A model generated the notes under the pieces. That model did no database searches and was not told the origin of the DNA. It worked only from the letters and a program-made list of their open reading frames with translations. Of a stretch of 64,000 nucleotides of DNA, positions 4,613 to 40,535 are shown piece by piece. How positions within the stretch are numbered: the first letter of the stretch is position 1; each line of letters begins with the position of its first letter. The DNA is from Daucus carota subsp. sativus (taxonomy: Eukaryota; Streptophyta; Magnoliopsida; Apiales; Apiaceae). Both the position numbers and the translations under genes were made by a program. The DNA lies in NCBI RefSeq assembly GCF_001625215.2, contig NC_030383.2:55604949-55668948 (forward strand). The letters are read 5' to 3'.

Positions 4613-5851
4613 TTACTCTGCCCCCTTCTGATCTTCATATAATTTGCGCACTTCCTGTTGTACAACATTATCACCAAATCCAATCATTTCTGCAATGTAT
4701 TCCATCCCTTGCCAATCTTCAAATTTGGGCTCTCGCTGCGACACATGATTAGTACCTGATCTAGGATTTGGTTCCCCAATATATTCCATTCCCTGACGAT
4801 CTTCATATTCGCGCTCTTGCTTCCACACATGATTTGTGCCTGATTTAGGATCTGCTTCTCGAATGTACTCCATCCCTTGCTGATCTTCAAATTTGCGCCA
4901 TACATTATTAGTACCTGATCTAGGATCTGGTTCTCGAATATATTCCCTTCCTTGCTGAACTTCATATTCGTGCTCCTGCTGACGGACAACATTAGTACCT
5001 GATCTAGGAATTGCTTCTCGAATGTATTCCATCCCTTGTCTATCTCCAATTCCCTGGTCTTGCTGACGGACAACATTAGTACCTGATCTCTCTGCTTGTC
5101 GCATGTACTCCATCCCTTGTCGATCTCCAAATCCCTGGCCTTGCTGACGGACAACATTAGTACCTGATCTCACTGCTTGTCTCATGTACTCCATCCCTTG
5201 TCGATCTGAAAATCCCTGGTCTTGCTGAAGTACAATATTAGTACCTGATCTCTCTGCTTGTCTCATGTACTCCATCCCTTGTCGATCTCCAAATCCCTGG
5301 TCTTGCTGACGGACAACATTAGTACCTGATCTCTCTGCTTGTCGTATGTACTCCATCCCTTGCAGATCCTCAAATCGGTGCTCTTGCTGACTGACAATCA
5401 TAGTACTACCCGCTCTATCCACGTCTCGAATTTTATCTCTCCCTTGCAAACCATCAGGAGAAATATCTGATGCTGATTTTCCCTCAATATATTCAACCCC
5501 TTGCTTAATAAACTCCATCCCTTTCTGAATACTCTCCATCTCATGACGCATTTCAGCATACATCAACAGACCTGACCGTATTCTCCCTCGAATATATTCA
5601 ATCCCTTTCCGATTATACTTCATCCCTTGCCGAAAACACTCAATCCCATAATGCAGTCCTGCATACTCCATGCTTTTTCTTGCCTTTTCTTCAAGAATCT
5701 CCATTTCTTTCTGCATGATCTCCATCCATTGTTGAAGACTCTCCATCTGCTGCGGCACTATTGTTCTTCCTTGAATATATGTGATCTCTCGCTGACTAAA
5801 CTGCATCCCTTGCTTAATAGAAAGCATTGCCAACTGCAGATCAGTATCCAT
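4613..5851 (-). CDS. Tandem-repeat protein of the QG[IM]EYI family (412 aa), unrecognised
   Basis: Single uninterrupted frame from the first ATG (5849-5851) to TGA. Residues 1 to about 150 are a Met/Gln/Glu-rich, probably coiled-coil region holding early motif variants (KQGMQF, RQGMKY, KGIEYIRGR, KQGVEYIEGK). Residues from about 165 onward are an array of 27-residue units, for example DRQGMEYMRQAERSGTNVV followed by RQQDQGFG. Units 2-5 are nearly identical at the DNA level with an 81-bp period. Later units carry READPRSGTN or REPNPRSGTN variants. There is no signal peptide or membrane segment, and the protein is very hydrophilic. I do not recognise the family. Core residues QG-M-EYI-R are shared with the genes at 31.5, 34.9 and 39.1 kb, which supports a common origin. 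A function cannot be inferred. The intact frame argues that it is a gene, but expression is unproven. Confidence 0.7.
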   Translation of the reverse strand: MDTDLQLAMLSIKQGMQFSQREITYIQGRTIVPQQMESLQQWMEIMQKEMEILEEKARKSMEYAGLHYGIECFRQGMKYNRKGIEYIRGRIRSGLLMYAEMRHEMESIQKGMEFIKQGVEYIEGKSASDISPDGLQGRDKIRDVDRAGSTMIVSQQEHRFEDLQGMEYIRQAERSGTNVVRQQDQGFGDRQGMEYMRQAERSGTNIVLQQDQGFSDRQGMEYMRQAVRSGTNVVRQQGQGFGDRQGMEYMRQAERSGTNVVRQQDQGIGDRQGMEYIREAIPRSGTNVVRQQEHEYEVQQGREYIREPDPRSGTNNVWRKFEDQQGMEYIREADPKSGTNHVWKQEREYEDRQGMEYIGEPNPRSGTNHVSQREPKFEDWQGMEYIAEMIGFGDNVVQQEVRKLYEDQKGAE

Positions 5852-6629
5852 AACTGATCTTTTTCTATAATTCGATAAGAAAATTGATGGAGCGAACTTT
5901 AATGGTGTGTGTTTAATAGACAGCTTGCTATTTCTGTGTGTAAAATCTTACTGTCATCTTCTTTGACTTTGTCATTAATGTCAATGTGCTGTACTTTCGA
6001 TGGCTACCTACAGGATCATTCAAGTTGACTTTCTATTTCCATTAGATGCTTAATGTAAGTTGAATAATTAGTTGCAGTAGCGAGTTTGCGTTAGTTGTAA
6101 TGTACTTGTTTATATCATTTCTAAAGATCATATCACCCCGTGGCCTCATATTGAGAAGAAAAGATCATCCTTTCCGTATCACTCTCTCAAAATCTCAAGG
6201 TGTTATGAGTCTCTCGCATGCTTAGAGCTTTGATAAAATGTTATGTAACCAATTCTCCCAATACCTCGAGATGCTAGGAAGGCTTACGAGGATCATATAG
6301 TATTAACAAATGGGTACAGTATTTCTCTATATATTCATCCTATTTAATAAATGGTTCAAGTTTCAGCTGTGATTCAGATTGAAATTGCAAGTACACACGG
6401 GTTGTGAATTATTGGAGTGCATGTAACACTGTAAGTTTCATAAGCAAGAAATTGGCTAGTCTCTGGTAACTAGTAAGAAAATTAAGTAATCGTATTCGAT
6501 ATAAGAGCAAAAATAGAATGAAACATTTTCTCACAGAAAATAATATAAATTTATATCTGACTAATAATAGTCAGATTACAAACTATTCTGACAAGGCTCT
6601 ACTGATCTTTCAATTGCTTCCCATTTCTA
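5852..6629. other. Intergenic, presumed promoter side of the minus-strand repeat gene
   Basis: No gene. About 6224-6310 is a copy of a dispersed repeat (AACCAATTCTCCCAA, then AGGAAGGCTTACGAGGATC) also found in the first ankyrin gene at 13.49-13.57 kb. About 6075-6125 resembles the local duplicates at 0.7-0.9 kb. Confidence 0.4.
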
Positions 6630-8528
6630 GTTGAGTATCTTGTTCTTCCTTGAATATACTGCTTAGTACTTGCTGCGATACACGATTGATACCTCATCTT
6701 CTTTATCTTCTTGGCTCTCGGATATACTCCGTCCCTTGGCAATCTTCGAATTTGAGCTCTTGCTACCGTACAGGTTAAGTACCAGCTCTTATTGATCTTT
6801 TTAGTTCTCGAATATATTCCCTCCCTTGTCGTTCATCAAGTCCCCCTTCCTGCTTCTGTACTGGATTAGTATTCGTATCTGATTTTTTTGCTCTTTTTGG
6901 TTCTCAAATATATTCCATTCCTTGTCGATCTTGAAATTCACCATCTTGTTGTGGTCATTGTTATCAAGTCGACGACTAGTCGACAAGTCGTTTTATAGAA
7001 AAAGTCAACCAACGACTTATTTAGTCTGGCGACTTATTTCAACATATCAGTGTCTCCCTAATCTTTGTATCATTTCAACTTCACATTATTATTTCCTTCT
7101 TATCACTACTTTTTGGCTTCAGGCTATGTAATATTTGTATCATTTTCAACATATAAGTATATCCCTAATTTTTGTATCATTTCAACTTCACATTATTATT
7201 TCTTTCTTATCACTACTTTCTGGCTTCAATTTATATGTGAACTAACAATCTGCTACGTCGTATACATCTCCCTGTTGCTTATTATCTTTTACTTTTTATT
7301 CAAACTATAAACTAATGTATGTTCAACTATATTTTGTATATTAAATCTAGTAATAATATGTATAAGAATTACTTGTCGACTTTTTACGACTACTTAGGGG
7401 ACTTGTCGACTAGTCAATAGTCGACAAGTCGTTTTATAGAAAAAGTCAACCAACGACTTATTTAGTCTGGCGACTTATTTCAACAAATCAGTGTCTCCCT
7501 AATCTTTGTATCATTTCAACTTCACATTATTATTTCCTTCCTATCACTACTTTTTGGCTTCAGGCTATGTAATATTTGTATCATTTTCAACATATAAGTA
7601 TATCCCTAATTTTTGTATCATTTCAACTTCACATTATTATTTCTTTCTTATCACTACTTTCTGGCTTCAATTTATATGTGAACTAACAATCTGCTACGTC
7701 GTATACATCTCCCCGTTGCTTATTATCTTTTACTTTTGATTCAAACTATAAACTAATGTATGTTCAACTATATTTTGTATATTAAATCTAGTAATAATAT
7801 GTATAAGAATTACTTGTCGACTTTTTACGATTAGTCGGGCGACTTGTCGACTAGTCAATTCCAAGGTATCCGGGCGCCGAGGCTCGACTTGGCGCCGTAA
7901 TAAGCTTGGTTGTGGTACCGGTTTACTATTCGATTTTTTTGATCTGTCCGGTTCTCGTATATATTCCATTCCTTTCCGTTCTTCAAATCTAGGTACAAGA
8001 TTAGCACGTTTATGTGATCGTTTTGATCTTTTTGGTTCTCAAACATACTCCATCCCCTGTCTATCTTTGTGCTCTTTCTGCGGTACTGATCTTCTTGATC
8101 TATCCGGTTCTCGAATGTATTCATTTCCTTGTCGTTCTTCGAATCTAGGCTCTTGTAGGCTGTAGCTGCACAGGATTAGTACGTTTACGTGATCGTTTTG
8201 ATCTTTTTGGTTCTCGAACACACTCCATTCCCCGTCTATCTTCGTACTACGATCTTTTTGGTTCTCGAACACACTCCATTCCCCGTCTATCTTCGTACTC
8301 TTTCTGCGGTACAGGATTAGTCCCTGATCTTGATCTATTTGGTTCTCGAATGTACTCATTTCCTTGCTGTTCTTCAAATCCGCGCTCTTCCCCTTGTACA
8401 GCTTTAGAAGCTAGTCTTCTTGGTCTTCTTGGTTCTCGAACATATTCCTTCCCTTGTGGTTCTTCAAATACATTAGTCTTGTGACCATTTTGATCTTCTT
8501 TTTTCTTCATTTCCTTGTTCACTCATAC
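6630..8528 (-). pseudogene. Decayed member of the QG[IM]EYI repeat-protein family, interrupted by a duplicated transposon
   Basis: Read on the minus strand, 8528 to about 7950 and about 6960 to 6630 are full of family units such as QQGNEYIREPNRSRSGTN, RRGMECVREPKRS and RQGMEYI, spread over all three frames. An ATG at 8526-8528 opens MSEQGNEEKRRSKWSQD and hits a stop. The repeat frame continues one base off, so a frameshift lies near the start. Further frameshifts and stops follow; the unit near 6915 reads GMEYI and then TGA. A roughly 880-bp insertion of transposon DNA (about 6970-7858) splits the array. The units are closest to the gene at 4.6-5.9 kb (RSGTN type), so this is probably its tandem duplicate. 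Confidence 0.75.
6966..7858. mobile_element. Two tandem 441-bp copies of a small DNA transposon with GACTAGTCGAC ends
   Basis: The segment starting CGACAAGTCGTTTTATAG recurs exactly 441 bp downstream with very few differences across the whole unit. The outer and inner borders consist of GACTAGTCGAC / GTCGACTAGTC-type inverted repeats, as in many small plant hAT-like elements. The two copies lie head to tail, sharing one border at about 7400-7430. There is no coding capacity. The 69-81-residue frames here are chance. Confidence 0.7.
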
Positions 8529-12623: not shown

Positions 12624-12624
12624 T

Positions 12625-12891: not shown

Positions 12892-13070
12892 CAAGTTGTT
12901 TCAGTTGTTTCATCTCTTAGCATCCGTCCTTACATCTAATTTGAGTGCCTCAGCGACTTTTAAGTAGAGGTAATTTTCTTTAATCTTTCGAGAACTGGTC
13001 ACTTAACATGTCGTGACTTGATTGCGTGACTACATTGATATGTTTTGGTGATTGATGATCAGGAGGAGAA

Positions 13071-16000
13071 ATGGCTGGAACTGGAACAGGTGGTTCAGCA
13101 TTTTTACGGCATGAGCACTCTATTGATATAATTACCCCGCCGCATCCACCTCTGCCGATCACTCCTTCTCCACCGCATCATCCTCGTTCTGCACCTAAGT
13201 TCCCTTCAGATATTTATCTTTCTGGTTAGCCTTTTTCATTGTCATTACACGTACGTGTTTTTGTGTTTATATATATATGTTTACAGTATCGCAATTCATT
13301 TACCTCAATGTGCTAGGAGTGCTACTTTTGGGTGCCCATATTTGGGGCATAGGGGCTTGATCATATTATATTTTAACATTCACCCAATTTTTAAGTATCA
13401 CTTTAGCTTTGTGTCCATATTTAAATATAAGAATATTGAGGTTGCGGGGAGTAGAACCCAGTCTCCCGTGAGCTCAGTTGTGATACCATGTTAAGTGACC
13501 AATTCTCCCAAAATCTAAAGGTGTTAGGGAGGACTTATCAGGATCGTATTATATTCTTAACACAAACAATCCCATACGTATGAGTCTTTTAGGACGCCCA
13601 AGAACAAGAGGTTAAAATGCACACAAATAATTAATGGAGCTATAAATCTTCTTGACCATATTGTTCTTCATTTTTATCAGAGGATTGAAAGAGTTGACTA
13701 CATTTTCCTACACCTAACTTTCTTTTCTCTTGTGGAAAACCGAGGATGAACATGAGAAGACATAAAATTAATAATAATGACCTCATAAAGTATGCTGGAG
13801 GTAGTTTGATTTAATTGATTTGGTGCAAGTAAATTTTTAGGTACCAAATGATGTCAATATTGTCTACTCTATTCTCTCTTTTTTTCCTTCTTCATTCTTC
13901 GATTTAAAAAATATTTATTCTTCAAATAATGAGACTACGATGTTGTGCACTAAGCTTTTATCTTTGAACTTTGTAGAGGATGAAAGGAAAAATTACCTAG
14001 CTATATGTTTGCCCCTCTATGAAGCCGCACTTAAAGGTGACTGGCAAACTGCACAAAAAATCATAAGCAAATGTCCAAAAGTGATTAATGTGAGCATTAC
14101 CAAGAATTATGAAACTGTTCTTCACATTGTCTCGTCAACAAAGCATGCTCACTTTGTGGAAGAGCTGTTAAAGTTAATGAAACCTGAGGACTTGGATCTT
14201 CAAAACAAAAACCGGAATACAGCTCTCTGTTTAGCAGCAGCAGCTGGAACAGTAAAAATTGTTGAGATGATGGTGGAGGTGGAGCCTAACCTTCTCATGA
14301 TACGCGGAAACAATAATATGTCACCACTCTTGATGGCAGCTTTGTTTGGACACAAAGAGATGGTGTCATATCTTTACTCTCGGACTGATAACATGACAGG
14401 CGGTGATTGGACTGATACGGATAGAATAATGCTACTAAATGCTTGCATCAGTGCAAAACTATATGGTAAGCTTTCTCCTGGTAGCAACATACTGACTAAT
14501 AAAAGCAAGTTATTTATTAATCTTATATGTTTCCTATGTCATTTTGGAAAGAATAAGTGTGATTACTTTTCATTATCCCTTTTTATCTTCGATGCCAAAT
14601 TAAATGATGCAAAACAGATGCACTGAGATCACAAGGGTTCACAAGAACTGACAGAATATAGTTAGCTTCTAATTATTGACGCCAGAACCTACAAAAAACC
14701 TAGTTTTGTCATATCTTATAGGTCTAATTGTATTGCAATAATTGATGATCAACAATTTGTAATATGGAAGACAACAGAACCCTTGTCTGGGAATAAGACC
14801 TGTTGAATTAGAAATATGCAGGACAAAAAGCCTTGTTTTTTCAGTATAGATATTGAGCTTGACATTTAGCGAAGTTCAAATATCCTGATGCCGTGTACCT
14901 GGATTCTGAAGTATCCCAGTTTAAGATCTTGATCATAAAACCACTTATTACTATAACTTCGGCCTCAGAATTTATCACGCTTTTCTGTTTCAGCGAATGA
15001 CTTGTACTGTCTTGCTATATATTTACTGATTTGATTTACGCTGTAGTTCCATTTAAGTTGTTATAACAGTTTGTTAATTTTTGAAGATGTGGCATTAAAA
15101 TTATTGGACAAACACAAGAAAAAGCTGGCATTGGCAACTGACAAGAATGCACTCCATATATTGGCTAGAAATCCATCAGAATTTGCTGGAATACGGCAGC
15201 CTGTTTATTGGAGACTACTTAATAAAAGTAAGTTTGATGCATATAATAGTTTTTTATATAAATAAAAAGGTTTAAGAAATCAAGAAGAAACCAACTTTCT
15301 AAAAGGAAAAACTGAACTCGCTTTAGGTTCTCTATGATGTCTACGATGTTTATTAATATCACTCGATTAATATATTTTTACAGTAATTCCTGGACCAAGA
15401 ATAGGACCTGGTGAGAAGAAATGTCAAGCACTTGAAATAGTCAAGGTAATTTGGGGAGAGATTGTTCAACAGAAGGATGATGACATATGGGACATAATCA
15501 GAGGCCCTCAAGAGATTGTAAGAGTTGAAGAAAAAGACCAACCTAATGCTAGGTATGTTGAGAAAAAAGTACATCAGTCCCGGCTTCTGTTTGTCGCTGC
15601 TTCATTGGGCAACACTGAATTTTTGATCGAGCTTCTTCGATTGTGTCCTGAGCTGATATGGAAAATAGATGACTATGAACGGACAATTTTCCACGTGGCA
15701 GTTTTACATCGTCAGGAGAGTGTCTACAATCTGTTATACGAGATAGGATCAATTAAGGACCTTGTAACTACTTTTAGGGACACAGGTGGCAACAATATAC
15801 TGCACTTGGCTGCTATGATGCCAGAACAAAATCGACTCCATATTGTGTCGGGAGTAGCTCTTCAAATGCAGCGGGAACTACTATGGTTCAAGGTACTGTC
15901 CCTTCTTTAGAACTTACCTCTAAGAAGAAAAACTTTCTTTTCTACCAACTAAGAAGAGTACCTTTTTTATATATTCTTTGGGGCAACGGCCAATTACAGA

Positions 16001-16800
16001 CATTTAAATAGTCATGTACACATGTCTCCACAGAGGCATGAACCGTTACCTCTCATTACCATGAATAAGAGGGGCACCCCGTAGGAAGTCTAGCAGATCT
16101 GCCCTCCAATTTTCTCAAACTTACATGCTATTCCTATATGTTAAATCTTACCCTTCCGTAACAAGTTGATATGAAATTCTTTTAGGAAGTAGAAGCTATG
16201 GTGCATCCTTCTTTAAGAGGAATGAAGAACAATAAGGGAAAAACTCCCGAAGCTTTATTCAGTGCTCAGCATGCAGATTTGATGGAAAAAGGGGAAACCT
16301 GGATGAAGGATACAGCATCTCAGTGCATGGTTGTTGCTGCCCTCATAGCTACAATTATGTTTGCAGCAGCTTTTACTTTACCTGGTGGTAGCAATCAGGA
16401 TAGTGGGCATCCAATATTCAAAAAAAGAAGTGCCTTTATGGTGTTTGTAATAACAGACGCCATATCATTGTTCAGCTCCTCAGCTTCGATACTTATGTTC
16501 TTGGCCATTCTCACAGCACGTTATGCAGAAGGAGATTTCTTGAGATCTTTACCTATAAAGTTGATGATTGGGCTCCTGGCACTTTTTATTTCAATTACTA
16601 CGATGATGATTGCCTTCAGTGCGAGCTTCTTCCTAGTTTACACAAAAGGTATGAAATGGGTACCTTATCTGATCTCCGGATTGGCTGGAGTGCCTGTTAT
16701 TCTATTTGCTAGACTTCAGTACCGTCTACTTTTTGATGTGGTTCGGACAACATTCAGTTCCAGGTTTCTGTTCAAGCCTAGGAAACATATGCTTTACTAA
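13071..16800 (+). CDS. Ankyrin-repeat membrane protein with PGG domain (ACD6-like), gene A
   Basis: Five coding exons: 13071-13224, 13977-14465, 15087-15227, 15384-15892 and 16186-16800. All have GT-AG borders and keep frame, giving 635 aa. Ankyrin repeats lie at about residues 60-190 (for example NTALCLAAAAGTVKIVEMMV) and 300-425 (RTIFHVAVLHRQESVYNLLY, NNILHLAAMMPEQNRL). The last exon encodes the PGG domain (AAFTLPGG near residue 497) and four membrane segments. Plant proteins of this class (ACD6 and relatives) sit in membranes and are tied to salicylate-linked defence; that role here is inference. Compared with gene B, the upstream ATGAGTGAAG mini-exon has become TTAAGTAGAG (12960-12969), so translation probably starts at the downstream ATG (MAGTGTGGS). 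Introns hold dispersed repeats. Confidence 0.88.
13430..13570 (+). repeat. Dispersed repeat in intron 1 of gene A
   Basis: Contains GATACCATGTTAAGTGACC, then AATTCTCCCAAAATCT and GTTAGGGAGGACTTATCAGG. This closely resembles 6224-6310, and its tail resembles 1205-1235 and 61520-61540. It looks like the end of a tRNA-derived SINE or another short retroelement; the class is uncertain. Confidence 0.5.
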
Positions 16801-17493
16801 AGCATTCCATTTTTATTTATGTTCATTATTTGATATGTTGTGACAGTTTATCTTCTGCTCAAAATGTACTCTGGTCCCACTTCATATTTCAGGAATGTGA
16901 GCTCATATATTTTTTGTTGAACTCAACACACGAATACAAGTTCCATTCTTTTTCAATCTGTAAGGTGCTGACAAAGGGAAATAAAAGATGTTTTTGTTGG
17001 TTCTAGCATTAGTAGAATGTGTAATCCACATTGAATTTAACAGTTTACACTTTGCAGTCAGCACTACCTAACACTTGATGCTTTTTGGTCCTTGTCATGA
17101 ATCTGTATATCCTACATAACAAACATACTATGGTAGTATGGAGTTTTGAAGTGCCATTCTGATTTGTGCACAAAGCCCCCTGTTGTGTCTAATGCCTCGC
17201 TGGCTTCAGTTCCTAGGAATCAATCAGCGACAAAATACTCTAATCTAATAACCATTATATGCCATCATCCAACTGGTTAGAACTGCTGCACAATCTTAAC
17301 TCTGCATTTTATTTGAAAATTTGTCCCAACTCATCACAGGAAGAGTAGCTTATATGTAAAATGTGTGTGAATTCTGAATAAAAATAACAAATCAAGTAAC
17401 GCCTGTAGCACAGGTGTGGATCAGTGGATGGGTGATGTAGCTGGTTAAGGTAACCTGTCCTTGTTTAGGAACTATGCAGATCATACTGTAATT
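16801..17493. other. Intergenic between the tandem ankyrin-PGG genes
   Basis: The 3' UTR of gene A probably occupies the first few hundred bases. No gene is seen. The right part grades into the duplicated promoter of gene B. Confidence 0.5.
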
Positions 17494-17738
17494 AGTCAAC
17501 TGCATGTTTTCATCAGATGATTGGCTTTCCCAAACCCCAGCTGTCGAGTAGTACATATATAATAACATTTTTACAACAACTCCAAGTATAATTGAGAATT
17601 GAATAACTAATTATCCAGTCACACATGCTTATCTGTTGTATTACAGTAATCATAGCCGATGTGGACAAGTTAAGGTCATGAAAAGTCTGCTGCTGAATGT
17701 TCAGTGACAACGTAAGACTCATCGCCTTCAATATAAAG
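17494..17738 (+). promoter_or_regulatory. Probable promoter of ankyrin-PGG gene B, with W-box and TATA box
   Basis: AGTCAA (W-box on the minus strand) at 17494-17499 and ATATAAAG at 17731-17738 occupy the same relative places as in gene A. The TATA box lies 81 bp before the ATG of the first mini-exon. Confidence 0.55.
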
Positions 17739-17811
17739 AAAGCAGGGTGTTTCATCTCATTCTTGCTTACAAACAATCTATGCTTGTTTAGTGAAGGTGT
17801 ATCAGCAGATT

Positions 17812-20800
17812 ATGAGTGAAGGTAAGCTCCTTGAACTAACACTCCCATATTGACTCAGCTCTTTAATTTATCTTACTCTGCGCCTTTTATCTACTAATCT
17901 GTCTTGCTTGCAATGTTGAAACAGAAGGAGTAATGGCAGGGACAAGTACTCCGAAATCATCTGCTGACATTGAACTACAGCCACATCACTCTATTGACAT
18001 CACAACAGCTCAACCAAATTTTCCTTCATCTATATATGTTTCTGGTATGTAGTCATGTTATTATACAAATCAAACTAATCGAACCTATGATTTAACGGTG
18101 CAGATGTAGGTCATGTATAAGAATTTTTCCAACATAATAATCACATCAAATTCTATAAACAAATGTAACTCTAATGCATTTAGCAAAAAAATAAAATAGA
18201 TAACTATAGTAGAATACATATCAAAATTCTATAAACTGCATGATAAGCTCTGATGTAGAACTTATATTACTTAATTTCTTGATTGGCCTCCACAAAAGTC
18301 TCTGCTTCTATCTGTGGAAGCCAGGAATCTGATCCAGATAATAATATAACCATAAGAAGTTGTACCTGTGGACTGGTAGTTTATTTTGTGTCATATGAAG
18401 AAGTTTTAAGGCACCAATATGATGTCGATGACCGTTCATTTTGTTATTATAAAACAGAAGGCTCAACTCAAAAGCAAAAGGAGGTAGATAGTTAAAAATA
18501 AGAAGATTTGAAATATCAGTACCAAGCTCTTATGCTTGTATTTTACACAGATAGAGAAAAGTACCAAACCATCTGTTTGCCGCTCTATGAAGCTGCACTC
18601 AAAGGTGATTGGCATGCTGCTCAAGGAATCATAGGCAAATATCCACAGGTGATAAATGTGAGCATTACTATGTATCATGATACTGCTCTTCACATTGCAT
18701 CATCGACGAAACACACTCACTTTGTAGAAGAGCTAGTGAAGTTAATGCAAGCGGAGGACCTGGAACTTCAAAACTCTTACTTGAATACAGCGCTCTGTTT
18801 AGCAGCAGCAGCTGGAACTGTTAAAATTGCAGAGATATTGGTAAAAAAGAACCCAAACCTTCTCACAAAGCGGGGAGCCAACAATATGTCACCACTCTCC
18901 TTGGCGGCTTTGTTTAGACACAATGGCATGGTTTCATGTCTTTATTCTAAAAGTAATAATATGACGGATGATGAGTGGACTGGCACGGACAGAGTAATGC
19001 TACTGCAGGCTTGTATCAGTGCAAATCTTTATGGTAAGCTTTCTTTAGGTAGGAACATATTATCAATTATAAAAAATCTAGTTATTTCATGTGTTATTAG
19101 CTTTCTTTACGTTCTAAATCTAAGTAAATTATATATGCATTTTGTTTTGGTAGATATATTTAGCGGTGTTAAAATAATGCACGCAGACTTGATTGCAAGG
19201 AATTTGTTAACACATTTAAATCTAGCCCTTTATGTGATGCCAGCATCTACCTAAATGAAAAGAAAGACACAAGTTTTCTTTATGTGATAACTGTAATGTT
19301 ATTGCAATTATTTTATGGTCAATAATCTACAAAATCAAACAAGACAAATTGTCTGAACATTACACCGGTGAATTTTAAGGTTTTGTTTACTGTAAATTGT
19401 TTTTACAAAATTATGTCATAGGGGATTCATCAGCACTGCATGGTCTCAGAGTATATATGTCAATCTGTGGCTTTAGATCCAGGGTGATACTTAGCTGATA
19501 CTTATTTTGCATTACTGATATTGTGCTTGACATTCAGAAAATTTCAAACATCTTGATGCAACACATCATGATTCTTAAGTATCTTACAATTAATTTAGTT
19601 GCTCCGTACCAGTTTCATAGTTAAGAGCTGAATCAAACTACTAATAAGGATTTATAAATTCAGTCTAAAATTTCTTATTCTTCCTATTTCATTGAAGGTC
19701 TTGGACTAGTAGATTCTTATGGTTGGCTTGTCATGCTATAAACATTAGCTTCACTTAATCTGTTACAGCTTTTCATCAATTTTGTAGATATTGCACTGAA
19801 ATTATTGCACCATCACAAGAAAGAACTGGCTTTGGCAACTGACAAGAATGCACTACACGTTTTGGCCAGAAATCCATCAGTATTGGAGGAAACAACGCAG
19901 GCTTTTTTTTGGAGACTATTTAATCCTTGTAAGTTATCCACTGATAAATTTTTTTGAGACGCCTGCAATATTCTTAATAATTAAAAGATAGAAAAATTCA
20001 GGGGAGAGAAACACTTATCTTGTCTGAAAGAGAAAGAAGTGAAGCGATTCAGTGTCCTCTATGGTGTGTGTAACATATATATAGTTCATTTCAATAATAT
20101 TCTTTTCTCACAGTACTTTTTGGACCAAAAATAAGTTCTGATCATAAGAAGAAATGTCAAGCACTTGATATACTCCGCATTATATGGAGGGAGGTTGCTA
20201 AACTGGAGCATGATGACATGTTGAACATAATCAGAGTCCCTTCAGAAACAGGAGATAAATGTCAACTTCTGTTTGTTGCTGCTGCATTGGGCAACACTAG
20301 ATTTTTAGTCGAGCTTCTTCGGTTGTCTCCTGAGTTGTTATGGAAGAAAGACAACAATGAGCATACAATTTTCCACGTTGCAGTTTTACATCGCCAGGAG
20401 AATGTCTACAATCTCATATACGAGATAGGCTCAGGTAAGGACATTATAACTTCTTCCAGGGACTCAGATGGCAACAGTATACTACACTTGGCCGCCATGA
20501 AGCCAGAACAAAGTCGACTCCATGCTGTCTCAGGGGTAGCTCTTCAAATGCAAAGGGAATTACTCTGGTTCAAGGTAATTAAAGATTTATTCCTCAAAAC
20601 ATAAACCTACAAAGAGTACTTTCACTTGGAAATATCTCTATACTCCCTCTGTCCCAATCATTTCTTTACGGTTTCCTTTTTGGGATATTCCATCCAATTC
20701 TTTACTTTTCAAAACTTATAAAAATAGTCAATGGTCCCACAACTCTCCCACTTTTCCTCCCTTTTCACACTACTTTTACTCTACTATCTCTCTCCGTGCC

Positions 20801-21504
20801 CAAATCAACGTAAAGAATTGGCTGGGCCGGAGGGAGTAATTTTTATAGCTCAAATTTTGTGACAAATTACAATGATATTTTTCTATCAGGAAATTGAAAC
20901 TGTTGTGCATCCTTCTTTAAGAGAAATGAAGAACAAACAAGGAAAAACACCGCAAGATTTATTCACTGAGCAGCACGCGGAACTGATGGAAAAAGGGGAA
21001 ACCTGGATGAAGGACACAGCAGCTCAGTGCATGGTTGTTGCAGCCCTTATAGCCACAATGACATTTGCTGCAGCTTTCACTCTACCAGGTGGTACCAATG
21101 GCGACAATGGGCAGCCAATATTCAAAGACAGAAGCGCCTTCATAGTATTCATAATAACAGATGCTGTGTCCTTGTTCAGCTCCTCAGCCTCCATTCTCAT
21201 GTTCCTGGCCATTCTCACAGCACGTTACGCGGAAAACGATTTCTTAGTGTCTTTGCCTCTGAAACTAATGATCGGGCTCCTAACACTTTTCATCTCGATT
21301 GCCACAATGATGATAGTTTTCAGTGCAAGCTTCTTCTTGGCTTATACAAAAGGTGTGAAATGGGTTCCTTATCTCATCAGTTTTCTTGCTGGTCTGCCTG
21401 TTGTTATGTTTGCTGCTCTGCTGTATCCCCTCTTCTTTTCTGTGGTTCGTTCAACTTACGGTTCCAGGCATCTCTTCAAACCTACAAAACACGTACTATA
21501 CTAA
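17812..21504 (+). CDS. Ankyrin-repeat membrane protein with PGG domain (ACD6-like), gene B
   Basis: Exons are 17812-17821 (ATG AGT GAA G), 17925-18044, 18551-19033, 19788-19928, 20114-20574 and 20890-21504. Frame is kept throughout and gives 609 aa. If the 10-bp mini-exon is not used, the ATG at 17933 gives 603 aa. Ankyrin repeats are spread over exons 3-5 (NTALCLAAAAGTVKIAEILV, HTIFHVAVLHRQENVYNLIY, NSILHLAAMKPEQSRL). The final 615-bp exon encodes PGG (AAFTLPGG, about residue 473) and four membrane segments. It is a tandem duplicate of gene A with the same exon order and a last exon of identical length. Exon 5 lacks about 16 codons found in gene A exon 4 between the DDD-I motif and the LLFVAA repeat. 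The intron before the last exon holds a Stowaway MITE. Confidence 0.88.
20643..20836. mobile_element. Stowaway-like MITE in the last intron of gene B
   Basis: Ends are CTCCCTCTGTCCCAATCA and its near complement (GGCCGGAGGGAG), flanked by TA (20641-20642 and 20837-20838). Subterminal TTCTTTACG / CGTAAAGAATTG also pair. About 194 bp, with no coding sequence. Confidence 0.85.
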
Positions 21505-22437
21505 AGACTTCCTCAGTTTGGCACGGTTAATTATAATTTAGATCACTTATTCATTTTAATATATCAAATATATTATCGATAAATTTTTAAACAAGTGGTA
21601 ACCAAGTGGTATATTCAAATAAAAAAGTGATCTATTCGATAATAAGATAATACTAATTTTAAACTCGTGCGTGCGATTATAGTATAGATGTTTTGTCACA
21701 GGTTCATGTGCTGGTAGAATTACTGTAACTAGTTTTTAGGTGCACGGGATTGTTAATATTTGTTTTTGAACTTTTAATGTTTAATTCAATTTAAAAATGT
21801 TAATCACTCTTGTCTATTAATTCCTGATCATCCGATTTTTAATCAGCACTTCAGGGTATTATCATGCAAGCACTTCAGGGTGTTATCATGCAAACAAGAA
21901 TATCGTGCTTGAGTTGAGGCTAAGATTTATACAATTTTTCCAATCATGTTTGAAATATAGTAGTTTGTATATATCGGTGAGATTAGTATGCTCCGATGAG
22001 GGCGGGGAGATATGACCTCGAAATTTGATAAAACATTTTTATAATACATTTTTATCTCGTCTCATCTTCGAAAAATCTCCGAATACCCGATTTGAGCGAG
22101 ACGCGGATCGAATCGGGGTCGATGGGATACCCATCCCTGATAAAATCAATCAAATATCATTAATTAAAATCCTGAAAAAAAAATTGATCACAATTTTTGA
22201 ATACCTGGCGATGTTCTTTTTTTATCTGTGATGCACAAGCGTGGGAGGATCGAAACAAAATACAAAAAATTATTGCCACACAAGCGCCACGTTAAGGCCA
22301 CACCAACCACAAAATATTGAAATAATCCGAGCCAGATAAAAATAAGATTAGCCACGTCAGAAAATCTTTAATTTTATTTACACACAGTTTTTGGTACGTA
22401 AGTTTTACATTTTCTTATCTGAAACTGAAAGTCGATA
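21505..22437. other. Intergenic, no gene seen
   Basis: 3' UTR of ankyrin gene B and the promoter side of the RETICULATA-related gene. CCACGTCAG near 22351 resembles an ACGT-core element. A 21-bp tandem echo (GCACTTCAGGGT.TTATCATGCAA, twice) lies at about 21845-21895. Confidence 0.45.
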
Positions 22438-31499: not shown

Positions 31500-32768
31500 A
31501 TGTCCGGATCGTCTCATGAATTTCAGTCAACTGTATCTGCAGAAAGGTCGAGTATTGAATTTGACAGCCAGGAAGATGAAAACCAGCAGAGGATCGATTG
31601 TATTCGACCGAGGGATAGGTCATTTTCTGAACCTGTGCAAACAAGTCAAGATGAAAATCAGCAAGGGATCGATAATATTCGAGAGAGACTACGTTCTTAT
31701 TCTGAAGATGTCCAACCAAGTGAATATGTAAATCAGCTGGAGGAATATAATCAACCAAGACTAGGCCCAATTTCTGAATTTGAGCAAGCAAATGAAAGTT
31801 CTACTTCTCAAGTTGTGCAAGTGGATGAATATGAATATCAACAAACAATAGAGGATATTCAGCCAAGAATGAGATCGATGTCTAGACTTGATCGAGCAAT
31901 TGAATATGAAAACCACAAAGTTGACTTCATTCAATCAAGACCAAGTCCAATTCCTGAACTCGAGCAAGCAAATGCTGATGAATATGAGCAAGGGATCGAG
32001 CATGTTCAACCGAGACAAAGATCAATTTCTACACATATGCAGCCAGATGAATATGAAAATCAGCAAGGGATGGATAACATTCATTCGAGACTAAGTTCAA
32101 TTTCTGAACTCGAGCAAATAAACGAATATGAAAATCAGCAAGGGATTGATAACATTCAGTCGAGACTAAGTTCAATTTCTGAACTCGAGGAATATGAAAA
32201 TCAGCAAGGGACGGATAACATTCAGTCGAGACTAAGTTCAATTTCTGAACTCGAGCAAGTAAATGAATATGAAAATCAGCAAGGAATTGATAACATTCAG
32301 TCGAGACTAAGTTCAATTTCTGAATATGATGATCAAGAAGTGATCGAGTATGCTCCAAAACTACGTTCAAGTACAATTTCTGAATCTGAACAAGCAAATG
32401 AGTATGAAAAGAAAGAGATCGAGTATGATCATGTGAAGATCAATTCAACAACATATACTGAAATGCGGAAAGCACAGGAAGTACTTGAAAATCTCCAGCA
32501 GGTCGATTTTATTCAAACGAAATTAAGATCAACGGAGGTCACTGACGCACATCAACAAGAAAAGCAAGGCACGGATATTCCGTCAGAGCATGCAGATCAA
32601 GATGAACACCATCAAGGAATCATATATGTTCCCGCAACAGAAAGTTCAACAGAGAAAAGAAGTGAAGAGGAAATTCAGCAAGAGAAACACGACGAAGTGT
32701 TAAACGAATTTCCCGAACATAAATTTATTTTCCGTGACCTCAAATCTGATGAGCAGCTGCATTGGTAA
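31500..32768 (+). CDS. Tandem-repeat protein of the QG[IM]EYI family (422 aa), unrecognised
   Basis: Single-exon frame from an ATG opening MSGSSHEFQST to TAA, ending DLKSDEQLHW. It is built of about a dozen 25-residue units. The best copies (about residues 180-270) read ENQQGIDNIQSRLSSISE followed by LEQVNEY; one copy lacks six residues. Units outside this core are diverged. The C-terminal 120 residues are non-repetitive and conserved with the gene at 34.9 kb (DEVLNEFPEHKF). There is no signal peptide, membrane segment or cysteine-based fold, and the protein is strongly charged and Glu/Gln/Ser-rich. Almost every unit carries R-x-x-S and S-x-S-E, possible kinase sites. The family is not recognised. 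Upstream and downstream flanks are homologous to those of the 34.9-kb gene, so it is part of a segmental duplication. Confidence 0.72.
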   Translation: MSGSSHEFQSTVSAERSSIEFDSQEDENQQRIDCIRPRDRSFSEPVQTSQDENQQGIDNIRERLRSYSEDVQPSEYVNQLEEYNQPRLGPISEFEQANESSTSQVVQVDEYEYQQTIEDIQPRMRSMSRLDRAIEYENHKVDFIQSRPSPIPELEQANADEYEQGIEHVQPRQRSISTHMQPDEYENQQGMDNIHSRLSSISELEQINEYENQQGIDNIQSRLSSISELEEYENQQGTDNIQSRLSSISELEQVNEYENQQGIDNIQSRLSSISEYDDQEVIEYAPKLRSSTISESEQANEYEKKEIEYDHVKINSTTYTEMRKAQEVLENLQQVDFIQTKLRSTEVTDAHQQEKQGTDIPSEHADQDEHHQGIIYVPATESSTEKRSEEEIQQEKHDEVLNEFPEHKFIFRDLKSDEQLHW

Positions 32769-34883: not shown

Positions 34884-36467
34884 ATGTCTGGATCGTCTCG
34901 TGAAATTCCCATGCCAACCGAGTATATTCAGCCAAGAGAAAGATCGAAATTTGTGCAAGCAAATGAGTTTGAAAATCAAGAGATTGAGCATGTTCGGCCG
35001 CGACTAAGTTCAATTTCTGAAACTGTGAGAACGAATGTATATGAAGATCAGCAATGGGAGCATATCCGACCAAAACATAGTTCAATTTCTGAACATGTGC
35101 AAACAAATGAATATGAATATCAGCAAGGGATCGAGCATGTTCGACCGAGACTAAGTTCGGTTTCTGAACGTGTGCAAGCAAGTGAAAATTGGATTCAGCG
35201 GGAGATCGAGTATGATCCAGCAAGACTAAGTTCAGTTTCAAAATATGTGCAACCAAGTGAATACGAAGATAAGCAAGGTATAGAGTATATTCAATCGAGA
35301 ACAAGGACAATTTATAAAATTGAGCAAACAGATGAATATGAAATGCAGCAAGGGATTGAGCATATTCGACCGAGACCAAGTTCAGTTTCTGAATTTGTGC
35401 AAGCAAATGAAAATGAAAATAAGCAAGGGATCGAGTATATTCAACATAGGATGAGATCGGTTTCTGAACTCGTGGAGGAAAATGTATATGAAAATAAGCA
35501 AGGGATCGAGTATGTTCAACAGAGGATGAGATCGGTTTCTGAACTCGTGGAGGAAAATGTATATGAAAATAAGCAAGGGATCGAGTATATTCAACAGAGG
35601 ATGAGATCGGTTTCTGACCTTGAGGAGGAAAATGTATACGAAAACCAGAGAATCGACCATATTCAACCAAGACTTATGCAAGCAAATGAAGTACATGGAA
35701 ACCAGCAAGGGATCAACTACATTCGACCAAGACTGAGTTCAATTTCTGAACTTGCGCAAGCAAACGAGTATGAAGATCAGCTAGGGATTGAGCATATTCA
35801 ACCGAGATTAAGATCAATTTCTAAATTTGTGCAGGAAAATGAATATGAAAATCAGCAAGGGATCGAATACATTCAATCGAGACTAAGTTCAATTTCTGAA
35901 CTCGCGCAAGCAAACGAGTATGAAGATCATCTAGGGATTGAGCATATTCAACCGAGATTAAGATCAACTTCTAAATTTGTGCAGGAAAGTGAATATGGAA
36001 ATCAGCAAGGGATCGAATACATTCAGTCGAGACTAAGTTCAATTTCTGAATTTGGGGAAGGAAATAACTATGATGATCAAGAAGCAACCGAGTATGCTCC
36101 AAAACCACGTTCAAGCACAATTTCTGAATCTGAACAAGCAAATGAGTATGAAAATGAGAAGGAATTGGAGTATAATTCAACAAGGTATAGTGAAATGTTG
36201 CAAGCACAGGAAAATGAAAATTTTCAGCAAGTTGATTATATTCGACAGAAACTAAGATCAACAGTGGTCACCGATGATGCATCATCAGAGAATGCAGATC
36301 AAGATGAAAACCGTCGAGGACTCAGACATGTTACTTTAGTAGAAAGTTCAACAAAGGAAACAACTGAACTCGAAATTCAGCAAGAGATGCATGACAAAGT
36401 GCTGGATATGTTTCCTGAACACAAATTTACTTCACGTGTCCTGAAGTTTGATGAGCACCTGCATTGA
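34884..36467 (+). CDS. Tandem-repeat protein of the QG[IM]EYI family (527 aa), largest member, unrecognised
   Basis: Single-exon frame from the ATG at 34884 (MSGSSREIPMP) to TGA. About 15 clear and several diverged 25-residue units fill residues 10-400, with consensus E-[ND]-x-Q-G-I-E-[YH]-I-[QR]-x-R-[LM]-[SR]-S-[IV]-S-E. Three successive units (about 35405-35635) are nearly identical 75-bp repeats (ENKQGIEYIQQRMRSVSE). A two-unit, 150-bp block is also duplicated (about 35735-36035). The C-terminus (KVLDMFPEHKFTSRVLKFDE) is non-repetitive and conserved in the gene at 31.5 kb and the relic at 40.4 kb. It is hydrophilic, with no signal peptide or membrane segment. A helical, solvent-exposed repeat rod or a disordered scaffold are both possible. 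Function is unknown. Confidence 0.72.
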   Translation: MSGSSREIPMPTEYIQPRERSKFVQANEFENQEIEHVRPRLSSISETVRTNVYEDQQWEHIRPKHSSISEHVQTNEYEYQQGIEHVRPRLSSVSERVQASENWIQREIEYDPARLSSVSKYVQPSEYEDKQGIEYIQSRTRTIYKIEQTDEYEMQQGIEHIRPRPSSVSEFVQANENENKQGIEYIQHRMRSVSELVEENVYENKQGIEYVQQRMRSVSELVEENVYENKQGIEYIQQRMRSVSDLEEENVYENQRIDHIQPRLMQANEVHGNQQGINYIRPRLSSISELAQANEYEDQLGIEHIQPRLRSISKFVQENEYENQQGIEYIQSRLSSISELAQANEYEDHLGIEHIQPRLRSTSKFVQESEYGNQQGIEYIQSRLSSISEFGEGNNYDDQEATEYAPKPRSSTISESEQANEYENEKELEYNSTRYSEMLQAQENENFQQVDYIRQKLRSTVVTDDASSENADQDENRRGLRHVTLVESSTKETTELEIQQEMHDKVLDMFPEHKFTSRVLKFDEHLH

Positions 36468-37973
36468 ATGATTCCAGAATTACAAATGAGCAGATAAAAA
36501 CTACAGAGTATTGCGCAGGCGTGATACTGTAGTAAAAAGACGAGAAGGAGAATTTTCTGTATAATTTGTTGTTTGCTTGAACTTGATTTGGTTTTTTTTT
36601 TTTCCGAGACTGTTTCCTGAAGGTCTAGCTCCAAAATTTTATAATAGCATTGTTGTTCATTTTCGTCTATACAAGTTGTGAGTTCCTTCTACTCTTGGAT
36701 TCATCACAAACTTATGACTTGATCCGTAGATATTTGCAAGAAAAATGAGGAATTTCAGAAATGATTCCGCCTTCATTTCAGGGTCTTCTAGATATAAAAT
36801 TTTACTGTGTGCAAAAGTATACGATCAACTTGACTATCACTGTCAGGTGCACCGCAAAATTGTGATTTCCGGGGCTCCGTGGATAACCAAGTTGTTATAT
36901 GCACTTCTAATGCTTTGGGAATTCAGATTCGAAAGACACCTGATTTTCGAGAAAAAACTTAGAATTTGACCTGAAATCAAGATCTAAGAGATTTTAATAA
37001 CCCAACTCAATTAAATCGGGTTTCTAGATTAATAACCCAATCCACAAAAAAATAATTCGAAACTCCATTCATAAAAATCATTTCGGTTTGGATCGGATTG
37101 ATAGGTTTAATGGATATAGAAAAAACAAATAAAACTCAAAAATAAATTGGTAAGATAAAAGTCGTATGTTCTCGTAAAAAAAGAAGATATCAAATAACTA
37201 GAATAATTATTATTTCATTTATCACAAAGAAATTTTATTATAAACATATAACATGATCTATTATATGATTATTAGTATAAATTGATTAAAAAAATTAATT
37301 ACTAGTATAATATAATATAAACATTATATTAAAATTATACTAAACAAAACTTGTGAATGGATAAATCAAACGACGTTGCAATCAATTTCAACCGATGTAT
37401 ATTAATATTCTGAGTACCAGGGATAATACCGAACACACACATACAGTAAAAATGATCATATATATTAAGATGAAACTTGTCCCTTGTGTATTAAATTGGA
37501 TAAATGAAATGTACATTTATTAAATTTCTAACTCTTCTAATTTTAATCGGATCGGATTGGAATGAATTAGTTTGAAACAAATCGAAACCCATATCCAATC
37601 CATTAAAATCGGATAATGTATTTTTAACCCGATAATATATCGGGTTGGAAACATTTTTTTTAATTATATATTATATTTATATTTAGGTCGGGGTCGGGAG
37701 TTTATCGGATTATTTACGGCTTTTCGTGAATGTTTGGTGTGCTAGTTTTGAGGTACGGATTCTATTCCTTTTATTCAACGTTACTCCTTTTGATATATAA
37801 TGATTTTGATTTGTCCTCTTTTAATCCGTCCGATTTGCTAAGTTTGTTCTGTGCTATTCCTTTGACTGTTTTGATTTCCGAAAAATATTTTAAAAATTTG
37901 TTTGGTTGAATCGATCGAAAAATGATCGATTTGGACGGATTAGCCGACCCGTGTACACCCTATTAGGGCTGAG
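36468..37973. other. Intergenic, AT-rich
   Basis: 3' UTR of the repeat gene, then degraded transposon-like DNA with many short TCGGATTGG / ATCGGGTT motifs (about 36990-37940). No gene seen. Confidence 0.4.
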
Positions 37974-38767
37974 AAAAAACTGAATTAAAATCGAAACTGA
38001 ACCGAAACCCGAAGATACTGAGAAAAACCGATCCGAACTGAAAATTTAAAACCGATCCGATTTAAATGGTCGGGTTCCGGTTATATGTCTCAACCGAACC
38101 GATAAAACCGAACCGAACCGGTTATTAAAATATGATTTAAATAATAAATATTTTATATATAATTTATATAAATTTTTTAGAAATTACTAATATATTCGAT
38201 CACAGAATAAATATTTTATTTGCTTTTCTATTTAGTAAATATTGGATTACTGGTAGACTTTAATTTATACTGGTGTTTTGCAGATGAGCCGCAAGTTGGA
38301 AGCTCTTCAGTTGTCTGCGCAGGCCTTGTGAAGCAGGAAATGATTTAAAACTTTTGCCTTGATGATTTTTTTGCTGCTTGGCGCTTGTTGATGCTCTGCA
38401 AGTCTGCCTTGATCTTTTGCCTAGACGATCCTTTCATTTATGTCATGTTTATGAAATTCTAACTTGATTCCCTCTGCTGGAAGCCTGGAACATAAAATGC
38501 ATTCCTCCTATTATTTGTGTTTAATTACGATGTAAAATTATTTATTTTTGTATTGCAATTATCAGCCTATTTTGTATTCAATTCCTCGTATATATATCTG
38601 TTATTTTTGTAACCGAAACCGAACCGTTTACAATCGAACCGAAGTTTTTTAAATCGAAACCAAATCCGAACTGACAGTTGCAGTTTTCGATTTTAAAAGC
38701 CGAAGATATATGGTTACGGTTACGATTTTATTCAAAAACCGGACCTAACCGACGCATGCTCTCCCTA
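37974..38767. mobile_element. Probable non-autonomous hAT-type element with CCGAACCGAACCG subterminal repeats
   Basis: The left end AGGGCTGAGAAAAAACTGAA and the right end, reading AGGGAGAGCATGCGTCGG on the minus strand, are weak inverted repeats. Both sides carry runs of ACCGAACCG-type motifs pointing inward (38095-38130 and 38615-38650), a common design in plant hAT elements. The interior 38281-38560 is richer in GC and may be captured or transposase-derived DNA, but has no usable frame. Borders are approximate. Confidence 0.5.
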
Positions 38768-39077
38768 ACAAGAACTGGAGTTGTCTTCATTCACATAAAT
38801 CTATAATGGATTCACATATGATGAATATGAGTAACTATTTTATTGATTTATTATATGCAAAATAAATTGGTATAACTCTGTCATGGAATCTTTTGAGCTA
38901 AATCCAGAGCAGCTCCAGATCACACAGGACAAATAGTCGTTGCTTCATTATCGCCACTTTCAACTATAATCCAGAAGGAACTTACAACCATACAACCATT
39001 AGCATTGTACTAATTATCTTAATCTGCACAGAGTTGCGTACTATATAGCGCAGGCTAAAGATTTGCATGATCAATCA
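38768..39077. other. Short intergenic stretch before the 39.1-kb gene
   Basis: AT-rich. GTACTATATAGC near 39037 is a plausible TATA box about 40 bp ahead of the ATG at 39078. Nothing else is identified. Confidence 0.35.
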
Positions 39078-40028
39078 ATGTCAACAGCAGATTCTTTGCT
39101 TGCTGATCCACTCCTCTCTTGTAGTAATTTGAACATCGACGGTATTCACCACGAAGAAGGCTCAACTGCTGAAGCTGAAAATCCACAAAAAACCGAATAT
39201 AATAGAAGAAGAAGAGAAGAAGAACTAGGTCAGAAATATATCGAGGAAATGCATATGAGGAGACTGAATCAGCAAAGGAAAGAGCATATTCAACAGGCAT
39301 GGAGATACCTAACCACAAAAAAAGAAAAAGAGGCAACGAGATCATATGCGGCTGAGAATGTACTTCAAGAGGCATGGAGATACCTAACCAAAAAAAAAGA
39401 AAAAGAACCAACGAGATCATATGCGGCTGAGAATGTACTTGAAACACACGTATATGAAGACCGGCAAGGGATGGAATACATTCGAGAGGTAGGGGACGCA
39501 AGATCACAAATGGTTTATGTTCCGGAAACAGTTGACGGGTATAAACAAGGGATAGAGTACATTCGAGAGGCAGGGGACGCAAGATCAGTCTCGACGGTTT
39601 ATGTTCCGGAAACAGGTGACGGATATAAACAAGGGATCGAGTACATTCGAGAGGTAGAGTACTTAAGATCACATGATGGATACCAAAATCAACAAAGCTT
39701 CGGGCACATACAAGAGAAACCAGAATCACCTCCGCCTTCTAAAGGGCACATTACAGAGGAAACAGAATCACCTCCGCCTTCTAAAGAGCTGCAAACATAT
39801 GAAAACGAAAACGGGCAAGGCATCCAAAATCAACAAAGCATCGGGCACATTCAAGAGAAAACAGAATCACATTCACCTTCTGAAGTGCTGCAAACATATG
39901 AAAACGAAAAAGAGCAAGGCATCCATCGTATTCGCGCAAAATTGAGATCATTCAGAAATTACATTAAGAATGTAATTCAGCGAATGCATCCGAAACGTTA
40001 CATGAAAGGAGTGGGGCGAAAGCATTAG
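39078..40028 (+). CDS. Divergent member of the QG[IM]EYI repeat-protein family (316 aa)
   Basis: Single-exon frame from ATG 39078 (MSTADSLLADPLLS) to TAA. Several kinds of internal duplicates follow one another: a 25-residue pair, AWRYLTxKKEKExTRSYAAE (about residues 70-120); three family units with YxQGIEYIRE separated by VYVPETxDGYK (about 125-195); and a pair around QNQQSxGHIQEKxES with PPPSKE links (about 200-275). The C-terminus is basic (NYIKNVIQRMHPKRYMKG). QGMEYIRE and DARS tie it to the gene at 4.6-5.9 kb, while the overall design is different. No signal peptide or membrane segment is seen. Unrecognised, function unknown. Confidence 0.65.
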   Translation: MSTADSLLADPLLSCSNLNIDGIHHEEGSTAEAENPQKTEYNRRRREEELGQKYIEEMHMRRLNQQRKEHIQQAWRYLTTKKEKEATRSYAAENVLQEAWRYLTKKKEKEPTRSYAAENVLETHVYEDRQGMEYIREVGDARSQMVYVPETVDGYKQGIEYIREAGDARSVSTVYVPETGDGYKQGIEYIREVEYLRSHDGYQNQQSFGHIQEKPESPPPSKGHITEETESPPPSKELQTYENENGQGIQNQQSIGHIQEKTESHSPSEVLQTYENEKEQGIHRIRAKLRSFRNYIKNVIQRMHPKRYMKGVGRKH

Positions 40029-40366
40029 CTGGTGGCCCTGTTCTTCTATTTGCTGTGCTGCACTATCGTCTCATCGTCTACCAAATTAGATGTTGCATGA
40101 CTGCAATAATCTTTGTGAAATGTACATTCCAAGTGTTTTAAGGATGTTCTGCATTTAATTCATCGTGCATAGACTTTTTAAACTTTGTCGATAGATCATA
40201 CTCCATTTGGGAGAGCGTTTATTCTGAAGCACGCAAACCTGGGTACTGCCAAGTTAATCATAAAGTATCACATTCGATCTGTATCAATAAATGTAGCAAA
40301 ATTTTCTTGTAAATCAGCAGGCGTGGCAAGCCAATAATACATCAACAGCGCGTGTCACTCCAGATG

Positions 40367-40535
40367 AACGTAGTAAAGCAATCGACTATGCTTTCAAACC
40401 AAAAAAGGAAACAACTGAACATGAAAATGAGCAAGATACTGAAGACAATTACTTGAAAAAAAAATATTAATTTCCTTTCCTGAACTACGATTTACTTCAC
40501 GTAGCCTGAAGTCTTACGACTACTTGAATTTGTAA
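40367..40535 (+). pseudogene. 3' relic of a QG[IM]EYI repeat-protein gene
   Basis: Reads AIDYAFKPKKETTEHENEQ and ends near TTTCCTGAACTACGATTTACTTCACGTAGCCTGAAGTC. This aligns with the last about 110 bp of the gene at 34.9 kb (KETTELEIQQ, FPEHKFTSRVLK), but an A-rich run ending in a stop (about 40455-40470) breaks the frame. No array or start remains. Confidence 0.65.

What the first reader, a model, noticed from the sequence alone, without database searches (positions are those of the whole stretch)
4613..40535. Local cluster of an unrecognised tandem-repeat protein family built on QG[IM]EYI units
Four intact single-exon genes (4613-5851 minus; 31500-32768, 34884-36467 and 39078-40028 plus) and two relics (6630-8528, 40367-40535) share the core Q-G-[IM]-[ED]-[YHN]-[IV]-[RQ] in 25- or 27-residue units. 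All are hydrophilic, with no signal peptide or membrane segment. Three subtypes differ after the core: RSGTN, RLSSISE/RMRSVSE, and REAGDARS with VYVPET. Frames stay open over 950-1,580 bp of low-complexity DNA, and damaged copies look clearly different, which suggests selection on the intact ones. I know no family with this unit. This is the best candidate in the window for something undescribed.
Basis: partly seen in the sequence, partly recalled or inferred. Interest (0 to 1): 0.85.

Follow-up and report, generated by a model that had tools for sequence, protein, structure and literature searches.

The report
Carrot-family disordered repeat proteins
The carrot genome holds a scattered, so far undescribed family of genes for water-loving proteins built from a repeated short motif, mostly floppy and sometimes capped by small helical domains; its relatives found so far are all from the carrot plant family and its job is unknown.

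Summary
The repeats and four long ORFs are real. The window is carrot, contig C3. No credible Pfam match was found, no PDB sequence match for the one protein tried, and no paper in the library searched holds the motif strings. All 11 named relatives found are Apiaceae (carrot, Heracleum, Apium).

It is not only a local cluster: carrot has further copies just left of the window and on C4, C5, C7, C8 and C9. Fuller copies carry an N-terminal segment and a C-terminal helical domain under purifying selection (dN/dS 0.17-0.31 among the three closest paralogues). The window's P0001 instead starts with a predicted four-helix bundle; the C4 copy with a hydrophobic stretch. What they share is a motif of about 15 residues, E[ND]xQG[IM]E[YH]I[QR]xxxRS, every 24-28 residues, in a region AlphaFold2 leaves unstructured.

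Best reading: a structured or anchoring end piece with a disordered, multivalent linear-motif tail. The architecture is well supported; the docking function is inference. Single-exon structure and expression are unproven. An undescribed, apparently lineage-restricted family of a known broad kind.

The parts
4613..5851 (-). ORF P0001, 412 codons: predicted four-helix bundle followed by a 27-28-residue repeat tail
5468..5848 (-). Predicted four-helix bundle of P0001 (residues 2-128)
   Evidence: AlphaFold2, helices 2-27, 33-59, 63-93, 98-128, block pLDDT mostly 72-90
4652..5374 (-). P0001 tail with nine QG[IM]EYI-type units, low model confidence
4535..4612 (-). Further P0001-type homology beyond the P0001 stop codon (P0019 match runs to 4535)
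3860..4006 (-). 49-codon open stretch with one stray unit
   Evidence: unit profile at 8 bits or more
6669..8522 (-). Broken P0001-type relic with stops and frameshifts
31500..32768 (+). ORF P0002, 422 codons: 25-residue units and Daucus-type C-terminal tail
32004..32300 (+). 297 nt bounded by GT and AG, missing from the P0005 protein: predicted intron inside the repeats of P0002
32412..32765 (+). C-terminal tail module of P0002
   Evidence: 56% identical to the P0003 tail
34884..36467 (+). ORF P0003, 527 codons: 25-residue units and Daucus-type C-terminal tail
36171..36464 (+). C-terminal tail module of P0003
   Evidence: 82% identical to the start of P0007, 57% to P0002
39078..40028 (+). ORF P0004, 316 codons, three strict units; homology to P0007 begins upstream of its ATG at 39006
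40315..40535 (+). C-terminal remnant: P0007-like last 51 codons (96%), then a frameshifted tail module (40443-40529)

Best explanation
The four ORFs belong to an undescribed protein family of Apiaceae. Shown by comparison or predicted: members have a disordered-looking stretch of 24-28-residue units with a conserved motif of about 15 residues, E[ND]xQG[IM]E[YH]I[QR]xxxRS, joined to different end pieces: a four-helix bundle (P0001 type), an N-terminal segment plus a C-terminal helical domain (C5, C7 and C8 copies, Heracleum, Apium), a hydrophobic N-terminus (C4), or a Daucus-type C-terminal tail (P0002, P0003). Inferred: the end piece folds or places the protein, and every unit is a short linear motif that docks one common partner, so that the tail binds through many weak sites; valency is set by unit number and perhaps tuned by phosphorylation near the conserved R-S. 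P0002-P0004 would be versions without the conserved end domains.
For: Homologues with the same units in three Apiaceae genera and in further carrot loci. Terminal segments under purifying selection: dN/dS 0.17-0.28 (N) and 0.20-0.31 (C) among the C5, C7 and C8 copies. C-terminal domain of P0015 identical to that of the C8 copy although the two differ by an indel of about 30 residues and by substitutions in the unit region. Units at pLDDT below 50 in both models, ends confident. Flanking positions not used to choose the units are conserved: E -3 69, N/D -2 84, Q/R +6 93, R +10 61, S +11 79 of 105. P0003 units taken by register: dN/dS 0.35 in the core, 0.61 elsewhere. P0002/P0003 C-terminal part 0.43, bootstrap 0.24-0.83. 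P0001 bundle and the other end domains show no sequence relation, so the unit is the common element.
Against: No partner, transcript or protein evidence was available. The hydrophobic moment of single units is weak: on average 5 to 29% of shuffles do as well, so a helical docking mode is unproven. Alignments for the structure models were shallow (10 and 5 sequences), which itself lowers confidence in repeats. dN/dS within arrays is confounded by exchange between units, and the relic gives a low core value too. pS values of 0.42-0.64 are close to saturation. The C4 protein rests on one ORF only; the search for its relatives did not complete (and earlier).
Confidence: 0.5

Rival explanations
1. 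Decaying cluster: the family is functional elsewhere in carrot, but P0002-P0004 (and perhaps P0001) are leftovers that lost the end domains, kept open for a while by their repeat structure.
For: P0002-P0004 lack the N and C domains; broken copies and stray units lie beside the ORFs; the P0007 protein suggests that the array differs between carrot assemblies.
Against: P0002/P0003 C-terminal dN/dS 0.43 with upper bound 0.83; intact frames of 316-527 codons (with the caveat on repeats); the tail module is shared by P0002, P0003, P0005 and P0007.
Confidence: 0.2
2. Dehydrin- or LEA-like protectant: hydrophilic disordered tails act by bulk properties under stress, without a specific partner.
For: GRAVY -1.10 to -1.26, about 31% charged residues, few Cys and Trp in the four ORFs; repeats predicted unstructured.
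Against: No dehydrin or LEA model among the Pfam matches of the family proteins scanned; the conserved helical end domains and the sharply conserved core are not needed for a bulk role.
Confidence: 0.13
3. Peptide precursor: the unit array is cut into short signalling peptides (prosystemin-like, without a signal peptide).
For: Head-to-tail units with a constant core and variable linkers; no hydrophobic N-terminus in P0001-P0004.
Against: Conserved end domains in fuller members; no regular cleavage-like site stands out between units by eye (columns); no BURP match.
Confidence: 0.06
4. Remnant of a mobile element or other selfish DNA.
For: Dispersed copies on several chromosomes; repeat-rich DNA; a reverse-transcriptase ORF elsewhere in the window at 56870-58249.
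Against: No transposase, reverse transcriptase or integrase match in the family proteins scanned; purifying selection on the end domains; few copies.
Confidence: 0.03

Closest known systems
Unnamed 'hypothetical' and 'uncharacterized' proteins of Daucus, Heracleum and Apium (P0005-P0012, P0016, P0019, P0020)
   Same: Direct homologues by sequence with the same units.
   Different: No function assigned by their sources; several have end domains that P0002-P0004 lack.
Paxillin LD motifs with the four-helix FAT and GIT1 domains that bind them (animals)
   Different: Different motif (LD consensus recalled); Z at that level is common for helical bundles by the tool's own note; sequence identity 3-7% or so; docking of the unit to the bundle is not shown. 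An analogy, not membership.
Dehydrins and other LEA proteins
   Same: Hydrophilic, repeat-bearing, largely disordered plant proteins (recalled; listing only).
   Different: No Pfam match to them; conserved helical end domains.
Rice PBI1 four-helix domain (PDB 7x8v)
   Different: 3% identity; a level that may mean only a common arrangement; no sign of a repeat tail was examined.

Membership tests
Apiaceae QGIEYI-unit family (defined here) | Tandem units with E[ND]xQG[IM]E[YH]I[QR]xxxRS | tested here: met
   P0001 11, P0002 8, P0003 13, P0004 3 units at 5 bits or more
Apiaceae QGIEYI-unit family (defined here) | N-terminal segment and C-terminal helical domain of the fuller members | tested here: not met
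   Profiles of both, searched over six frames of the window: no hit of weight. So P0002-P0004 share the units only; P0001 has another N-terminal domain
Dehydrin / LEA proteins | Match to a dehydrin or LEA Pfam model | tested here: not met
   P0001-P0004 at E up to 1; relatives at E up to 0.1 or 1: none listed
Dehydrin / LEA proteins | Induction by drought or cold | not testable with these tools
   no expression data
BURP-type peptide precursors | BURP domain | tested here: not met
   no BURP model among the matches of P0001-P0004; precursors without that domain are not excluded
Paxillin/FAT-like pairing | Four-helix bundle | tested here: met
   P0001 residues 2-128 predicted; fold shared by many unrelated proteins
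Paxillin/FAT-like pairing | Homology to FAT or GIT1 domains | tested here: inconclusive
Paxillin/FAT-like pairing | Units bind the bundle | not testable with these tools
   needs a binding experiment
Transposon-encoded protein | Transposase, integrase or reverse-transcriptase domain | tested here: not met
   none listed

The most novel reading that the evidence does not exclude
The tail units are exposed copies of a helix segment of the proteins' own bundle: the unit profile finds helix 3 of the P0001 bundle (residues 79-94, 0 of 400 shuffles as good). Tails of one molecule would then pack on or into bundles of others, giving a self-assembling plant scaffold whose valency is set by unit number, with tail-only genes (P0002-P0004) as cross-linkers and the C4 form tying it to a membrane.
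Probability: 0.1. Interest if true: 0.72.

Novelty: new variant of a known kind. Interest (0 to 1): 0.45.

Why it matters
It adds a family that the libraries searched do not name, apparently confined to the carrot family, in which one short motif array sits on several unrelated end pieces. If expressed, it is a handy case for how a young, largely disordered protein system arises and diversifies, with natural variation in unit number in a crop. It also shows that annotation of such genes is shaky: the P0005 model drops 99 residues of repeats as a predicted intron.

Tried and rejected
Pfam matches. Three lie just above their cut-offs: Anticodon_2 in P0003 (25.0 against 23.6 bits), CNOT1_1st in P0011 (28.1 against 27) and DUF3791 in the C7 ORF (27.8 against 25). 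The first and third cover repeats and have no single stretch that passes; the second lies on copies of the helical domain of P0011 but on none of the other relatives scanned. I take them as composition artefacts; CNOT1 is the only one I would recheck. The other weak matches are below cut-off.

Missing upstream exons with the N segment near P0002 and P0003: nothing convincing. Amphipathic helix of single units: weak. Within-array dN/dS with units chosen by the core (core 0.00-0.23 in seven genes, but the relic 0.14) was set aside for selection bias; one search replaced it, without confidence limits.

Papers: motif strings QGIEYI, QGMEYI, QGIEHI and two gene names gave 0 papers; 'Daucus carota' with 'orphan genes' and 'tandem repeat protein' gave 0; one coriander orphan-gene paper (PMC11901849) was seen as passages and does not hold the word 'repeat'. 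Papers were seen as listings with the starts of abstracts.
Full report
WHAT IS THERE. The window lies at C3:55604949-55668948 of a 441-Mb genome; C3 is 64,558,952 bases long. A contig of the same length carries a protein named DCAR_0313389 of Daucus carota subsp. sativus (P0019), and the ORF just left of the window holds that protein's sequence for most of its length, so the window is carrot. Their frames are longer than in Markov shuffles (316-527 codons against at most 221 in 500 trials each). That control is lenient, because a repeat with a period that is a multiple of three keeps any frame open; antisense ORFs of 268 and 224 codons exist over P0003 and P0004. The stronger evidence for coding is comparative.

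ADDITIONS AND CORRECTIONS. P0001 (4613-5851, minus) starts with about 130 residues that AlphaFold2 builds as a four-helix bundle, followed by a tail at low confidence. P0002 and P0003 are tandem duplicates: besides the coding part, two upstream stretches and some downstream DNA align at 67-69%. They share a C-terminal tail that, among the proteins compared, is seen at high similarity only in P0002, P0003, P0005 and P0007, with a remnant at 40443-40529. P0005, from another carrot assembly, equals P0002 but lacks 99 residues; the missing stretch is bounded by GT and AG at 32004-32300 and its ends do not fall at equivalent places of two units, so I read it as a predicted intron and not as repeat contraction. 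P0007, numbered next to P0005, matches the P0003 tail at 82%, the P0004 region at 47% (starting upstream of the P0004 ATG, at 39006) and 40315-40467 at 96%. I infer that the array differs between carrot assemblies; exon structure here is unsettled.

SELECTION. For the last 110 codons of P0002 and P0003, Nei-Gojobori dN/dS is 0.43, bootstrap 95% 0.24-0.83 (97 aligned codons); over the whole local alignment it is 0.48 (367 codons). For 12 units of P0003 taken by register it is 0.35 in the core, 0.61 elsewhere and 0.52 overall. A first version with units chosen by the core gave 0.00-0.23 in the core of seven genes, but 0.14 in the relic too, so it proves little.

THE FAMILY. Three protein searches gave 16 relatives besides the window's own P0002 (P0005-P0020): 11 named (3 carrot, 4 Heracleum sosnowskyi, 4 Apium graveolens) and 5 unnamed. 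Heracleum and Apium are Apiaceae; Daucus by general knowledge. Two of the searches scored only about 8000 candidates and all need shared five-residue words, so absence elsewhere is provisional. In carrot, searches with P0002, P0001 and P0020 found, beyond the window: C3:55602057-55603061, C4:40.63, C5:6.34, C5:27.16, C7:5.38, C7:24.11, C8:28.22 and C9:44.68 Mb, and a 31-residue P0001-like piece on C6 with a stop. Frames are open at C4 (271 codons; 235 from ATG), C5:6.34 (412), C7:5.38 (409), C7:24.11 (436) and C8 (285); C5:27.16 and C9 have a stop in some matches. The tool calls such counts lower bounds, and searches with P0015, P0009 and P0021 did not complete.

ARCHITECTURE. The copies at C5:6.34, C7:5.38 and C8, and several from Heracleum and Apium, carry an N-terminal segment (around EAWSQLV and PPSDMS) and a C-terminal helical domain around the units; in P0006, P0009 and P0011 the helical domain occurs more than once. 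In the P0015 model both ends are confident while residues 40-209, which hold the units, are below pLDDT 50. Neither end was found in the window. Among the C5:6.34, C7:5.38 and C8 copies the N segments have dN/dS 0.17-0.28 and the C domains 0.20-0.31; the seven pairs with C9 or C5:27.16 give 0.35-0.57, with upper bounds up to 0.96. Synonymous differences (pS 0.42-0.64) are near saturation. P0015 is almost the C8 protein: identical in the C-terminal domain, with an indel of about 30 residues just before it. The C4 protein begins with a strongly hydrophobic stretch (Kyte-Doolittle 2.47) followed by units. Profile comparison shows no relation between the P0001 bundle and the N or C pieces of the other type. 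The unit is what all share.

THE UNIT. In 105 units chosen by the strict core from 25 proteins, flanking positions not used for the choice are conserved: E at -3 in 69, N or D at -2 in 84, Q or R at +6 in 93, R at +10 in 61, S at +11 in 79. The unit profile of the P0001 type, built from 26 tail units, also matches the N-terminal parts: in P0001 residues 79-94 in helix 3, 0 of 400 shuffles as good; in P0016, P0017, P0018 and P0019 0, 5, 6 and 0 of 400. The P0019 best hit (131-139) may be an early tail unit and not part of a bundle. So the tail unit may have arisen from a bundle helix.

NOVELTY. No credible Pfam match in the proteins scanned, no PDB sequence match for P0003, and none of the 5.39 million papers held contains the motif strings or the two gene names tried. 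This is an undescribed family of a known broad kind, lineage-restricted and repeat-rich plant proteins with disordered tails. One motif array on several unrelated end pieces is the unusual point.

Noticed in passing
window 41086-43521, minus: Two ORFs in one frame match the halves of a plant cation/H+ antiporter (CHX); they are separated by about 50 bases with an in-frame stop: short intron or broken gene.
   Followed up: partly
window 6977-7859: A 441-bp unit duplicated in tandem at 98% identity sits between the two parts of the first relic.
   Followed up: partly
window 13940-21512 and 61700-63130: Tandem pair of ankyrin/PGG genes on the plus strand at 71-79% DNA identity, with a third partial copy (PGG part) on the minus strand near the right end.
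   Followed up: no
window 56870-58249, plus: ORF of 459 codons with a reverse-transcriptase domain (RVT_1).
   Followed up: no
L022 4381-5088 (carrot C4:40.63 Mb): A 235-codon ORF with a strongly hydrophobic N-terminus followed by basic units of the same motif (pI 10), unlike the acidic members in the window.
   Followed up: partly
window 32004-32300: A protein of another carrot assembly (P0005) lacks exactly this GT...AG-bounded stretch of repeats: likely mis-annotation, or an intron kept inside a coding exon.
   Followed up: partly
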